From assembly GCF_000018865.1 (NCBI RefSeq), contig NC_010175.1, positions 3,348,001-3,412,000 of the forward strand: a stretch of DNA of 64,000 nt, written 5' to 3'. Shown here in pieces: positions 19,187 to 23,004 of the stretch. Made by a program: the position numbers and the translations under genes. The notes under the pieces are model-generated. The model was not told the origin of the DNA. It worked only from the letters and a program-made list of their open reading frames with translations, and ran no database searches. Position 1 is the first letter of the stretch, and every line of letters begins with the position of its first letter. Source of the DNA: Chloroflexus aurantiacus J-10-fl (lineage in GTDB: Bacteria > Chloroflexota > Chloroflexia > Chloroflexales > Chloroflexaceae).

Positions 19187-19722
19187 ATGCCTCCCGTATG
19201 TTTACAAAACCCGGCTGCGCGTTCGATTGTAAACGCATGCGGGTAATTGTGCAACGTCAGTTTGTCTCCGTAGAGCGGGCTGCCAACCCACACTCGTTGA
19301 TCGCTTGCGCCACCGTCACGACACCAACCGTGCCTACACTCAAGTGTGGGTCGCAGCGGTTTCTCCATAGGTCCAAATCTGGCAGAGTAGAAGTCACGAC
19401 ACACTAGCTAACGATGACTCTGACACAGCACCTGAACGATGCACCGCCAGACGCCAGCGCCGGTATGTAGGGGCGACGCATGCGTCGTCTACGCAGCCAT
19501 CGCCTCGCACTACATTCAATGCGTCCGTTTCTGCAACCTGTTCGACACAATTTCGTCTACCACCATGATACTGCTTTTAATTAGTGATAGGGTGATCATG
19601 CAGGCGTAGAAGACTCCATCAATTATCAACTCCTAACTTCCCATCACCAGAAACAATCTGGACGAAACCGTTTCATTTGCTATCATATACGTAGACTACT
19701 GCGACAGCTTCAGGAGATGATC
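19187..19722. other. Intergenic between divergent genes
   Basis: About 535 bp between glgC (minus) and the next plus-strand gene; it must hold promoters for both. The only clear feature is the palindrome at 19467-19492. The stretch 19560-19710 is AT-rich and is the likely promoter region of the rightward gene. Confidence 0.5.
19467..19492. repeat. GTAGGGGC-type palindromic repeat, CGACGCATGCGTCG arm
   Basis: The outer GTAGGGGC box is kept but the inner arm is GACGCATGCGTC; the right box is imperfect (GTCTAC). A sister copy with the same arm lies at 30259-30284. Confidence 0.8.
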
Positions 19723-20199
19723 ATGACCCTCTATCCTCCTCCAGCTCAGCCGCAATCAGGTGGAACGCTGCGTTGGGTGTTGATCGGAATTGGTGCAGGA
19801 TTGTTGTCGTTGGTGCTCTGCTGTGCACTGTTAGCGTTTGGTGGGTGGCAATTATTTAGTGGACTTGTAGATGAAACATCGGCCATGCAGCAGGTTGTGC
19901 GCGATTTTATGGATGCAGGCCGAAGGCAGGATATTGCGGCAGCCGAGGCTCTCTTTGCTGATGCGGGCAGTGTGTCTGTTTCACGTGACGATTTGGAACG
20001 TCTCTTCGCTAACCGCCAGCTCTTCCGCGAAGTTGAAGGCATGTCGTTGCGCAGCTTCAATATCCGTACCGACACGGAGGGAGGCACGGCTGAAATAGCC
20101 GGTACTCTGAACTATACCGATGGCGGAACCCAACCCTTTTCAGCGCGATTGCTCAAAGAGGGTGATCATTGGCGACTGGTGCGGATCGATTTTCGTTAA
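19723..20199 (+). CDS. Single-pass membrane protein with NTF2/DUF4878-like domain
   Basis: This 158-residue protein has a short proline-rich N-terminus (YPPPAQPQ), one membrane helix (about residues 18-45, rich in Leu/Gly/Cys) and a C-terminal domain (about 60-158) whose pattern VVRDFMDAGRRQDIAAAEAL ... HWRLVRIDFR resembles DUF4878/NTF2-like folds. The second ATG (19723) is preferred because CAGGAG then sits at proper distance; the first ATG would be too close. The stop lies 18 bp before the restriction endonuclease gene, but that cassette has different composition and may be a separate insertion. Confidence 0.75.
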   Translation: MTLYPPPAQPQSGGTLRWVLIGIGAGLLSLVLCCALLAFGGWQLFSGLVDETSAMQQVVRDFMDAGRRQDIAAAEALFADAGSVSVSRDDLERLFANRQLFREVEGMSLRSFNIRTDTEGGTAEIAGTLNYTDGGTQPFSARLLKEGDHWRLVRIDFR

Positions 20200-20217
20200 C
20201 TGATGAAAGAGAGTGCA

Positions 20218-21087
20218 ATGGCGCAGACACAACAGCCTCTGGCCGAGGTGTTTGGTTATCAAATCACCGATCAATCTGAGGCAGCGGCGCGCTGTCGCTC
20301 GGCACGGCTGTGCCCGTTTCAAGGTCAGGATCGTAAGTGTACAAAGGATAAAGCTAACAATCCGCTAGGTGTTTGCGCTATTTATCATAATAATGAGCCG
20401 GTCATAACATGTCCAATTCGTTTTCGTCAGAACTGGCTGATTGCTCAGGATGCTGCTCTATTCTTCTTTGGGGAAGGAACAAGATGGAGTATTTTGACAG
20501 AAATCCGCCTGCCAGATGCTTTCGGTAAATCCGCAGGCAATATTGATGTTGTACTGGTTTCTTATGATGACGAAGGAAGGATTACTGATTTTGGAGCTAT
20601 TGAGATACAGGCAGTATACATTTCAGGTAACGTTCGCAGTTTTTTTGAGCATTATATGAGAGACCCTCAAGGTTATATTGTCGGAGATTGGATTGGAGAA
20701 ACACCTGTACCGCGTCCTGATTATCTCTCATCTTCACGGAAACGGCTTGTACCACAACTTATGTATAAAGGTGCTATCCTTAGGGCCTGGAACAAGAAAA
20801 TGGCGGTTGTAGTGGACGAGCAGTTCTTTCAAACGTTACCACAACTGGCGTCAATACCGCCACAAGATGCAAACATGGCCTGGTTTATTTACCGTTTAAT
20901 GCCTGGCAGGCAGGCTCATGAAGGAACAGAGCGATATTATCTGGAGAAGGTTACGGAGGTATTTACTGACTTTGAGCAGGTTATACGAGTGATGACAACA
21001 TCATCACCGGGTCGTTCGGAAGACTTTATCAAGTTTCTGCAAGCGAAACTTCATGAGCAACGGCAGACGCGCCATTCAAATCTCTGA
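20218..21087 (+). CDS. NotI-family type II restriction endonuclease
   Basis: This 289-residue protein matches the NotI family. The metal-binding fold has four Cys (C32, C41, C53, C65) in RLCPFQGQDRKC, NNPLGVC and PVITCPIRF. The nuclease core continues with FFGEGTRWSILTEIRLPD, then GKSAGNIDVVLVSYDD (D110) and FGAIEIQAVYISGN (E129, Q131), a D-(E-x-Q) variant of PD-(D/E)XK as in NotI. An adenine methylase overlaps or follows directly. The ATG at 20218 is favoured by the AGAGAG upstream; 20203 is an alternative. Codon use is more AT-rich than in neighbouring genes, suggesting transfer. Specificity cannot be read from sequence. Confidence 0.9.
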   Translation: MAQTQQPLAEVFGYQITDQSEAAARCRSARLCPFQGQDRKCTKDKANNPLGVCAIYHNNEPVITCPIRFRQNWLIAQDAALFFFGEGTRWSILTEIRLPDAFGKSAGNIDVVLVSYDDEGRITDFGAIEIQAVYISGNVRSFFEHYMRDPQGYIVGDWIGETPVPRPDYLSSSRKRLVPQLMYKGAILRAWNKKMAVVVDEQFFQTLPQLASIPPQDANMAWFIYRLMPGRQAHEGTERYYLEKVTEVFTDFEQVIRVMTTSSPGRSEDFIKFLQAKLHEQRQTRHSNL

Positions 21088-21106
21088 CCGAAAGGTTGTC
21101 TCTATC

Positions 21107-22009
21107 ATGACTGGCTTACGACAGGTATCACTATTCCCTGAGTTAGATAATCGATCCAAATCACATGCTCCGGTTAATGTGGCTTCTGTGCCACAACGCA
21201 GTCCTTTTCGATATCCGGGTGGTAAGACCTGGTTTGTGCCCACGTTTCGTCAATGGATGACCAGTATGTCGGTAAAACCGAATCTTCTGGTGGAGCCATT
21301 TGCTGGTGGTGGGATTATTAGTTTAACCGCATTATTTGAGCAGTTGGTAGAACGAGTCGTGATGGTAGAACTAGACGCTGATGTGGCAGCAGTCTGGGAA
21401 GTCATCGTTCAGGGTGATGTGGAATGGCTGGTCGAGCGTATTCTGAGTTTTACCGTGACACGAGAAACTGTACTGGCGGAACTGGCAAAGGCACCGACGA
21501 CGAAACGTGAACGGGCGTTTCAGACGATTTTGCGCAATCGAACACTACGGGGCGGGATTTTAGCTGATGGTGCCCGGTTTATGAAAGCCGGTGAAAATGG
21601 GAAGGGAATCGGTTCGCGCTGGTATCCTCAGACTCTTGCTCGCCGTTTGCTTGATCTCCAACGTATTGTTGATCGTATCGATTTTCGTTGCGATGATGGA
21701 TTGCTCGTTATGACCGAGTATGCCTCTCGTGCCGATGCTGTATATTTTATCGATCCACCCTATACCGCCGGTGGGAAAAAGGCGGGAAAACGATTGTACA
21801 AACACCATCATATCAATCACGAGCATTTGTTTCAATTGTGTCAATCACTTGCAGGTGATTTTTTAATGACATATGATGAATCAGAAGAAGTAAAACTGAT
21901 GGCACAAAAATATGCATTCCAGACGAGATTAATCCCAATGAAGAATACACATCACGCAACAATGAATGAGCTTGTTATTGGTAAAGAATTGTCCTGGCTT
22001 GATGACTGA
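21107..22009 (+). CDS. D12-class DNA N6-adenine methyltransferase
   Basis: A 300-residue Dam-like methylase that would protect sites cut by the preceding NotI-family nuclease. Visible motifs are FRYPGGKTWFVP (SAM-binding start of the D12 class), LLVEPFAGGGIISL (motif I) and VYFIDPPYTAGG (catalytic DPPY). The ATG at 21107 lies 19 bp after the nuclease stop; an in-frame ATG at 21053 would overlap the nuclease gene by 35 bp and is possible. DPPY and the family imply methylation of adenine, so the recognition site contains an A and cannot be the all-GC NotI site. Composition is AT-shifted like its partner. Confidence 0.92.
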   Translation: MTGLRQVSLFPELDNRSKSHAPVNVASVPQRSPFRYPGGKTWFVPTFRQWMTSMSVKPNLLVEPFAGGGIISLTALFEQLVERVVMVELDADVAAVWEVIVQGDVEWLVERILSFTVTRETVLAELAKAPTTKRERAFQTILRNRTLRGGILADGARFMKAGENGKGIGSRWYPQTLARRLLDLQRIVDRIDFRCDDGLLVMTEYASRADAVYFIDPPYTAGGKKAGKRLYKHHHINHEHLFQLCQSLAGDFLMTYDESEEVKLMAQKYAFQTRLIPMKNTHHATMNELVIGKELSWLDD

Positions 22010-22131
22010 TTATACATTACGAGCGTAACTATTAGCATATTGTTATCTGGTAGTTTGCGTCTAACTTGTTTCTGCGTCTGAATAAAGACAATTCATAATG
22101 ATCTGACGTGCAATTGACAAGGAGGCGCGCT

Positions 22132-23004
22132 ATGTTTCGCACCATTCTCGTTCCGCTTGATGGTTCAGTCGTGGGCGAGCAGGCGTTGGCAGCCGCAGCC
22201 CGGCTGGCGCGCGCATTTCAGGCTACCGTGCATCTGGTGCATGTGCATTATCCCAATTCGTTGACCCCCATCGTGATCGAAACGCTACCGGTGATTGATG
22301 CCGAATTGCATTCTCTGGCTGCTGAACACGAACGCTTTTACCTGAATCAAGTTGCTGCTCAGCCGGTTTTCAATGGCGTGCAGACGGTCGTTACCCGTCT
22401 GGAAGGGGCTGTTGCCGAGACGCTGGCGGCACATGCACAGGCGATCAATGCCGATCTGATCGTGATGACGACGCATGGCTGGAGTGGGTTTGAGCATTTC
22501 TGGCTGGGGAGCGTGGCCGAGTCGTTGTTGCGGTTGACCCACACCCCACTCTGGCTGATGCGACCGGGAGAATCGGCGTCGCGGGCTGCGCAACCGCTGC
22601 GTCGTATTCTCGTTCCCCTCGATGGCTCGGCGCGTGCCGAGCAGATTTTGGCACCGGTCCAGAGTCTGGCAGCGCTTGATGGCGCTCGTTTAACGCTGTC
22701 CCGTGTTCTGGTACAGCGCCGTGGTGCGGATCAGGCCGAAGTGACTGCACAAAAGCAGGAGATTGAAGCGTATTTGCAGGCACTGGCAACCAGGCTGGAA
22801 GCGCAGGGGGTGCCGGCAGATATAGCGGTAGGTACTGCTGATCAACCGGCACGGGCGCTGCTCACCCTGAGTCGTGAGCTACAGGTTGATGCGATTGCGC
22901 TGGCTACGCGCGGCCAGGGTGGCTGGCAGCGCATGGTGATGGGCAGTGTTGCCGATAAAATCATTCGTGCCAGTCCCGTGCCGGTGCTGGTTGTCCGTCC
23001 GTAA
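22132..23004 (+). CDS. Universal stress protein, two UspA domains
   Basis: The 290-residue protein is a tandem of two UspA folds (about 1-145 and 160-290), each starting with RTILVPLDGS or RRILVPLDGS and ending with the ATP-binding pattern G-2x-G-9x-GS (THGWSGFEHFWLGSVAES; TRGQGGWQRMVMGSVADK). Both halves therefore look nucleotide-binding. The start at 22132 follows a strong AAGGAGG. Its stop is 4 bp from the end of the convergent MOSC gene. The role is presumably a soluble stress or energy sensor, as for the family. Confidence 0.93.
   Translation: MFRTILVPLDGSVVGEQALAAAARLARAFQATVHLVHVHYPNSLTPIVIETLPVIDAELHSLAAEHERFYLNQVAAQPVFNGVQTVVTRLEGAVAETLAAHAQAINADLIVMTTHGWSGFEHFWLGSVAESLLRLTHTPLWLMRPGESASRAAQPLRRILVPLDGSARAEQILAPVQSLAALDGARLTLSRVLVQRRGADQAEVTAQKQEIEAYLQALATRLEAQGVPADIAVGTADQPARALLTLSRELQVDAIALATRGQGGWQRMVMGSVADKIIRASPVPVLVVRP

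What the first reader, a model, noticed from the sequence alone, without database searches (positions are those of the whole stretch)
20218..22009. NotI-family endonuclease with an adenine methylase: a type II system of unknown specificity
The nuclease shows the four-Cys metal fold and D110/E129-x-Q131 site; its neighbour is a D12 N6-adenine methylase. NotI itself targets GCGGCCGC with no adenine, so this enzyme must recognise another site, which contains A. Lower GC content suggests transfer. A thermostable new specificity is plausible.
Basis: partly seen in the sequence, partly recalled or inferred. Interest (0 to 1): 0.65.

Follow-up and report, generated by a model that had tools for sequence, protein, structure and literature searches.

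The report
NotI-type restriction enzyme with adenine methylase
This is a two-gene restriction-modification cassette, a relative of the DNA-cutting enzyme NotI next to an adenine methylase, inserted into a bacterial chromosome; the same gene pair occurs in many bacteria and some archaea, but the DNA sequence it recognises was not found here.

Summary
20218-21087 encodes a NotI-family nuclease (PF12183, E=3e-99; predicted fold matches NotI, Z 18.7) with the four cysteines and D110/E129-x-Q131 intact; 21107-22009 encodes a D12 adenine methylase (predicted fold matches Dam and DpnM). The pair is a conserved cassette: 405 relatives were found and the best 80 examined; in 78 the methylase directly follows the nuclease, and the other two contigs end there. 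In 7 of 7 congeners the flanking genes are neighbours, so about 1.92 kb of low-GC DNA (0.453; chromosome sample 0.571) was inserted. RefSeq already names such a pair on a Thermus plasmid: a new member of a known kind. In more distant family branches the partner is mostly a cytosine-5 or SPPY-type methylase. Palindrome avoidance gave one lead, no proof: CGATCG is 8 to 39 times rarer per Mb here than in six congeners, the strongest host-specific loss of 64 palindromes. But carriers with the most similar nucleases (Pyrinomonas O/E 0.80, Roseilinea 0.61) hardly avoid it, and the host has many other methylases. Site, activity and thermostability are untested.

The parts
20218..21087 (+). R gene: NotI-family type II restriction endonuclease (289 aa; ORF open from 20203)
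   Evidence: PF12183 E=3.2e-99; model vs NotI 3c25 Z 18.7, 274 residues; Cys4 and D110/E129-x-Q131 conserved
21107..22009 (+). M gene: D12-class (Dam-like) N6-adenine DNA methyltransferase (300 aa; ORF open from 21053)
   Evidence: PF02086 E=3.2e-12; model vs 7m6b Z 23.6, E. coli Dam Z 21.6, DpnM Z 21.5; directly downstream of R in 78 of 80 relatives
20200..22118 (.). inserted segment, about 1.92 kb, GC 0.453, between two genes that are neighbours in congeners (edges good to a few bases)
   Evidence: nucleotide homology to 7 congeners ends at 20195-20200 and resumes at 22116-22120; gaps of 13-553 bp between the two genes in 7 of 7 congeners; GC
19717..20199 (+). left flanking gene (160 aa; DUF4440 resemblance below the curated cut-off)
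22108..23004 (+). right flanking gene, universal stress protein (probable start 22132)
   Evidence: PF00582 E=6e-54; congeners

Best explanation
A complete type II restriction-modification cassette gained by horizontal transfer. Shown by sequence, context or model: the R protein has the NotI fold with its four cysteines and the D...E-x-Q variant of the PD-(D/E)xK nuclease centre; the M protein is a Dam-like D12 methyltransferase; the two genes travel together; the cassette sits between two genes that are neighbours in congeners. Inferred: M methylates N6 of an adenine in a short, probably palindromic site on host DNA; an R homodimer cuts the same site when unmethylated, perhaps leaving a 4-base 5' overhang as NotI and EagI do (recalled); the effect is destruction of incoming phage or plasmid DNA. 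The site is unknown but should contain A and should not be GCGGCCGC. Only 18 bp separate R from the stop codon of the upstream gene, so R is probably read from an upstream host promoter.
For: Family and fold of both proteins. A family member with a cytosine methylase partner matches NotI 3bvq by sequence, E=1.2e-5. R then M on one strand in 78 of 80 relatives, gaps -30 to 93 bp except one of 256; the other 2 stop at contig ends. 20 of 22 close Chloroflexota loci, this one included, hold the M; L007 ends at a contig edge, L022 has a split R and no M. Same pair on a Thermus brockianus plasmid. Neighbouring flank genes in 7 of 7 congeners. In congener G230 the R frame is broken while M is intact, as expected if M protects against R.
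Against: No activity, methylation, cleavage or phage data. This R finds no PDB entry by sequence, as single sequence or as profile, nor do two other family members; the link to NotI rests on the Pfam profile, one intermediate sequence and the predicted fold. Palindrome avoidance gives no site shared by the carriers.
Confidence: 0.9

Rival explanations
1. The methylase works but the nuclease is inactive or unexpressed here, leaving in practice a solitary methylase.
For: R is broken in congener G230 and split in G272 (L022). There is no room for a promoter between the insertion edge and R, and the consensus scan of 19600-22200 found no more promoter-like sites (4) than shuffles give (3.9).
Against: Here R is full length with the residues that are invariant in the 54-row alignment; the upstream gene may supply transcription.
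Confidence: 0.12
2. The pair is not a classical restriction system but belongs to a PD-lambda-5-like defence system, whose methylase is its best PADLOC match.
For: M matches PD-Lambda-5_B at 4.2e-39, better than any MTase_II model. [quoted passage not shown]
Against: R matches only a REase_II model in PADLOC and is a full NotI-type nuclease. Another D12 gene of this genome, beside a HerA-like ATPase, fits PD-Lambda-5_B far better (4e-73).
Confidence: 0.04
3. The strong loss of CGATCG in this genome is caused by another resident system or by other pressures, not by this cassette.
For: Whole genome: 7 D12, 10 N6_N4 and 1 C5 methylase-family hits, some partial. The C5 gene has no close counterpart in 7 congeners (26-32% identity at best). 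Carriers with the most similar R do not avoid CGATCG strongly: Pyrinomonas 5747 sites in 3.8 Mb, sampled O/E 0.80; Roseilinea 2265 in 3.6 Mb, O/E 0.61. Carriers G253, G347 and G190 have 2518, 3151 and 1944 sites.
Against: Two other candidate nuclease genes of the host, one a REase_II match and one an unclassified ORF beside a D12 gene, have full-length relatives (55-66% identical) in congeners without this loss, so they are less likely causes.
Confidence: 0.75

Closest known systems
NotI (GCGGCCGC; PDB 3bvq, 3c25)
   Same: Fold (Z 18.7 over 274 residues), Cys4, D...E-x-Q centre (the Q and the Cys4 of NotI are named in PMC4081073, passages seen)
   Different: About 15% identity; adenine methylase partner; carries a conserved RPDYLSSSxKR segment that is missing in the cytosine-partnered relatives L028 and L290
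NotI family restriction endonuclease + DNA adenine methylase of Thermus brockianus plasmid pTbrSNM4-1c (NZ_AP025595)
   Same: Same two genes, same order; R 62.7%, M 63.0% identical
   Different: Plasmid-borne, genes overlap; no site given in the record
Aeromonas caviae and Burkholderia cepacia plasmid pairs (NZ_AP026379, pIJB1 NC_019378)
   Same: NotI-family R followed by a DNA adenine methylase; M 51-52% identical
   Different: R only 37-39% identical
E. coli Dam, DpnM and 7m6b (Mcbe1), D12 adenine methylases
   Same: Fold Z 19-24 over 222-234 residues
   Different: 15-20% identity; target site not shown to be GATC

Membership tests
NotI family (PF12183) | Profile match above the curated cut-off over the full domain | tested here: met
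   331.5 bits vs 22, positions 1-238 of 238
NotI family (PF12183) | Four-cysteine metal site | tested here: met
   C32, C41, C53, C65 present; Cys in 77 or 78 of the 78 (of 80) relatives with letters there and in 10 of the 10 (of 11) distant ones with letters. Metal binding itself not tested
NotI family (PF12183) | D...E-x-Q nuclease centre | tested here: met
   D110, E129, Q131 present; same residues in 80 of 80 and 11 of 11 relatives
NotI family (PF12183) | NotI fold | tested here: met
   Predicted model, mean pLDDT 84.9, cysteine loop 33-42 below 50; Z 18.7, rmsd 4.2, 274 aligned to 3c25_A
NotI isoschizomer | Recognises GCGGCCGC | not testable with these tools
   That site has no adenine for the partner to methylate; inference only
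D12 N6-adenine methyltransferase | PF02086 match, SAM motif and DPPY motif, Dam fold | tested here: met
   47.2 bits vs 22; EPFxGG and DPPYT; Dam Z 21.6
D12 N6-adenine methyltransferase | Transfers methyl to adenine N6 in DNA | not testable with these tools
   needs methylome or assay
Type II restriction-modification system | Linked nuclease and methylase genes | tested here: met
   78 of 80 relatives, 2 cut by contig ends
Type II restriction-modification system | Both enzymes act on the same site; cleavage blocked by methylation | not testable with these tools
   no site known
PD-lambda-5 defence system | Both components present | tested here: inconclusive
   B-type match 4.2e-39 for M; R matches only a REase_II model at E<=1; no A-type model was checked by name

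The most novel reading that the evidence does not exclude
The cassette recognises CGATCG: R cuts it as a near relative of EagI (CGGCCG, recalled) and M methylates the A. This would make the D12-partnered branch an adenine-containing branch of the NotI family and would explain why CGATCG occurs only 134 times in this 5.26 Mb genome against 997 to 5026 times in six congeners.
Probability: 0.17. Interest if true: 0.5.

Novelty: new member of a known kind. Interest (0 to 1): 0.3.

Why it matters
NotI-type enzymes are valued rare cutters (recalled). A large branch of this family, labelled to about 20 phyla by record titles and paired with an adenine methylase wherever the partner could be seen, has no recognition site that I could find. 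One methylome or cleavage map from any carrier might name the site for much of the branch, and carriers such as this one and Thermus brockianus are natural sources of a heat-stable version.

Tried and rejected
Assigning the site by palindrome avoidance. In a 464 kb sample of the host, CGATCG stood out (16 seen, 355 expected), but several palindromes are equally low across the genus (CAGCTG, CGTACG, GAGCTC), so low counts alone mean little. The host-versus-congener contrast over all 64 six-base palindromes left CGATCG (z -9.2), CGGCCG (-4.9), CGCGCG (-3.1), TTCGAA, AGGCCT and GGATCC (-3.0 each). It used five congeners; the sixth, G198, was dropped because its five fetched contigs hold only 4,023 bases, and congener G230 itself carries the cassette with a broken R. 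By inspection of the tables, the carriers Pyrinomonas, Roseilinea, G253 and G190 show no motif depleted together with the host but not in non-carriers. In one search the Roseilinea sample counted 12 kb twice; corrected, CGATCG is 25 seen, 41 expected, 0.61. Whole-genome CGATCG counts in carriers run from 11 in 2.0 Mb to 5747 in 3.8 Mb, without correction for composition. The assignment is therefore only a lead.

Pooling the 80 carrier loci (1.16 Mb) showed general palindrome avoidance, with no matched control. Eight-base sites were not tested. Recalled C. aurantiacus specificities (CauI, CauII, CauIII, CauB3I) could not be tied to this gene; the listings gave nothing usable. No repeats mark the edges of the insertion. 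PDB sequence searches with this R, the Sedimenticola R and an SPPY-partnered R found no NotI. Type I, III and IIG methylases of the host were not searched. Of 34 places, 30 became loci and were examined. In the tree, nine loci were left out (L001 as the window's own copy, L286 as a copy of L031's R, and L004, L009, L014, L021, L022, L023, L025 as fragments, overlong or broken frames), and three rows (L007, L064, L091) bear the label D12 although their partner lies beyond the contig end.

Full report
The observation. The window is a piece of a single 5,258,541-base chromosome (window = bases 3348001-3412000). That length is, from memory, that of Chloroflexus aurantiacus J-10-fl; no call names the organism. 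A genome of the same family in the search set (G253, L008) has the same nuclease as Candidatus Chloroploca mongolica (L101; identical rows), which fits; below, congeners means genomes listed as of the same genus. Two + strand genes lie at the stated place. The first matches the NotI profile over its whole length (331.5 bits, cut-off 22) and the second the D12 adenine methylase profile (47.2 bits, cut-off 22). It is the only NotI-family match in the genome.

The nuclease. Counted from 20218, residues D110, E129 and Q131 are invariant in a 54-row alignment and in 80 of 80 close and 11 of 11 distant relatives. The cysteines C32, C41, C53 and C65 are conserved in nearly all rows with letters there. 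A structure predicted from the 54-row alignment (mean pLDDT 84.9) matches NotI above everything else: Foldseek E=7e-11, Z 18.7 with 274 residues aligned at 4.2 angstrom and 15% identity; the best entry other than NotI has Z 8.3. The cysteine loop (33-42) is modelled poorly. NotI's Cys4 iron site and its Q in place of the usual lysine are named in a review (PMC4081073, passages seen). By sequence this R finds no NotI in the PDB, but the R of a Cronobacter plasmid pair of the same family finds it at E=1.2e-5; two other family members do not.

The methylase. The predicted structure (mean pLDDT 80.9) matches D12 enzymes: 7m6b Z 23.6, E. coli Dam Z 21.6, DpnM Z 21.5. EPFxGG and DPPYT are invariant in 17 of 17 rows. 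Its best PADLOC match is the methylase of PD-lambda-5 (4.2e-39), but that label fits another D12 gene of this genome far better (4e-73).

The pair is a conserved unit. A profile search found 405 relatives at E<=1e-3 in species genomes; the best 80 were kept (53-64% identical), with titles from about 20 phyla including archaeal Methanothrix. Most are metagenome bins, so some placements may be wrong. In 78 of 80 the methylase follows the nuclease on the same strand, at -30 to 93 bp except one at 256; the other two loci end at a contig edge. Among 400 Chloroflexota-set genomes 31 hold a NotI-family match; of 22 loci of the close kind, this one included, 20 have the D12 partner beside R. Distant family members mostly keep other partners: SPPY-type methylases in L024, L026, L029 and L030, a cytosine methylase by motif in L028, and annotated cytosine methylases in Sedimenticola and Cronobacter; the Aeromonas and Burkholderia plasmid pairs, also distant in R, keep a D12-type partner. 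On a quick tree of 107 nucleases the four partner classes need 4 changes (least possible 3; shuffled mean 7.9). Branch lengths there are very uneven, some joins are flagged as possibly false, nine loci were left out, three rows carry the D12 label by default, and one cytosine-partnered row (L287) sits next to the D12 branch, so the tree is a rough guide.

Arrival. In 7 of 7 congeners the two flanking genes are neighbours: 13, 16, 16, 21, 91, 141 and 553 bp between the matched stretches. The 553 bp gap (G126) shows no trace of R or M. Nucleotide homology to the congeners ends at 20195-20200 and resumes at 22116-22120. The segment between has GC 0.453; none of 200 equal windows from a 400 kb sample of the chromosome is as low. 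The methylase groups with those of Roseilinea, Pyrinomonas, two Anaerolineae bins, an Atribacterota bin, G316 and congener G230 (8 rows with this one, SH-aLRT 100), not by phylum; the nuclease's neighbour on its tree is Thermus brockianus, at support 90 with a long branch. Congener G230 has its own copy at 1.35 Mb while its flank genes lie at 4.63 Mb; its R frame is broken around residues 66-69 and M is intact.

The site. I tried to read the site from avoidance. CGATCG occurs 134 times in this genome and 997, 2193, 2425, 3402, 5026 and 4419 times in six congeners, and in samples it is the strongest host-specific loss among all 64 six-base palindromes (z -9.2 against five congeners). Two other candidate nuclease genes of the host are less likely causes, because full-length relatives occur in congeners without that loss, assuming that relatives 55-66% identical share a site. 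A cytosine methylase without a close counterpart in congeners cannot be set aside, and not all other methylases were examined. Against the link: in the carriers with the most similar nucleases CGATCG is common (Pyrinomonas 5747 in 3.8 Mb, O/E 0.80; Roseilinea 2265 in 3.6 Mb, O/E 0.61), the carriers G253, G347 and G190 are not short of it, and counts in other carriers range from 11 up. Thermus brockianus is low in count (38 in 2.3 Mb), but its sample gives 5 seen and 8.5 expected. I hold the CGATCG reading at 0.17.

Verdict. No paper on such a pair appeared in the listings of five searches of the held library (20 of 36 listed, 16 of 16, none found, 15 of 116), which lacks most subscription journals; REBASE could not be consulted.

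Noticed in passing
host genome sample, loci L111-L130 and the window: Extreme loss of many six-base palindromes: CGTACG 1 seen/100 expected, CAGCTG 3/133, GAGCTC 3/86, TTCGAA 3/76, GGGCCC 6/92; most are also low in the sampled congeners.
   Followed up: partly
host genome: L237, L230, L243, L240: Other type II nuclease genes beside methylase genes: ApaLI-like, EcoRV-like (short at the N-terminus, 175 aa), Bpu10I-like and EcoO109I-like, the last beside a broken-looking methylase.
   Followed up: partly
L234 (host bases 980001-992000): A D12 methylase matching PD-Lambda-5_B at 4e-73 followed by a 664-aa HerA-like ATPase, a possible defence pair.
   Followed up: no
L244 (host bases 3920001-3932000): A C5 methylase without close counterpart in 7 congeners, beside a 227-aa ORF that resembles MutY/mismatch glycosylases by eye only.
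   Followed up: partly
L287 (Sedimenticola plasmid NZ_CP011413): A NotI-family R with a segment like that of the D12 branch (RPDFRSSxxKRL) but a cytosine methylase partner, a possible partner swap.
   Followed up: partly
host and congeners, GTGCAC: GTGCAC is less avoided in the host, which has an ApaLI-like gene (O/E 0.51), than in four of five sampled congeners (0.02-0.14; the fifth, G126, 0.63).
   Followed up: no
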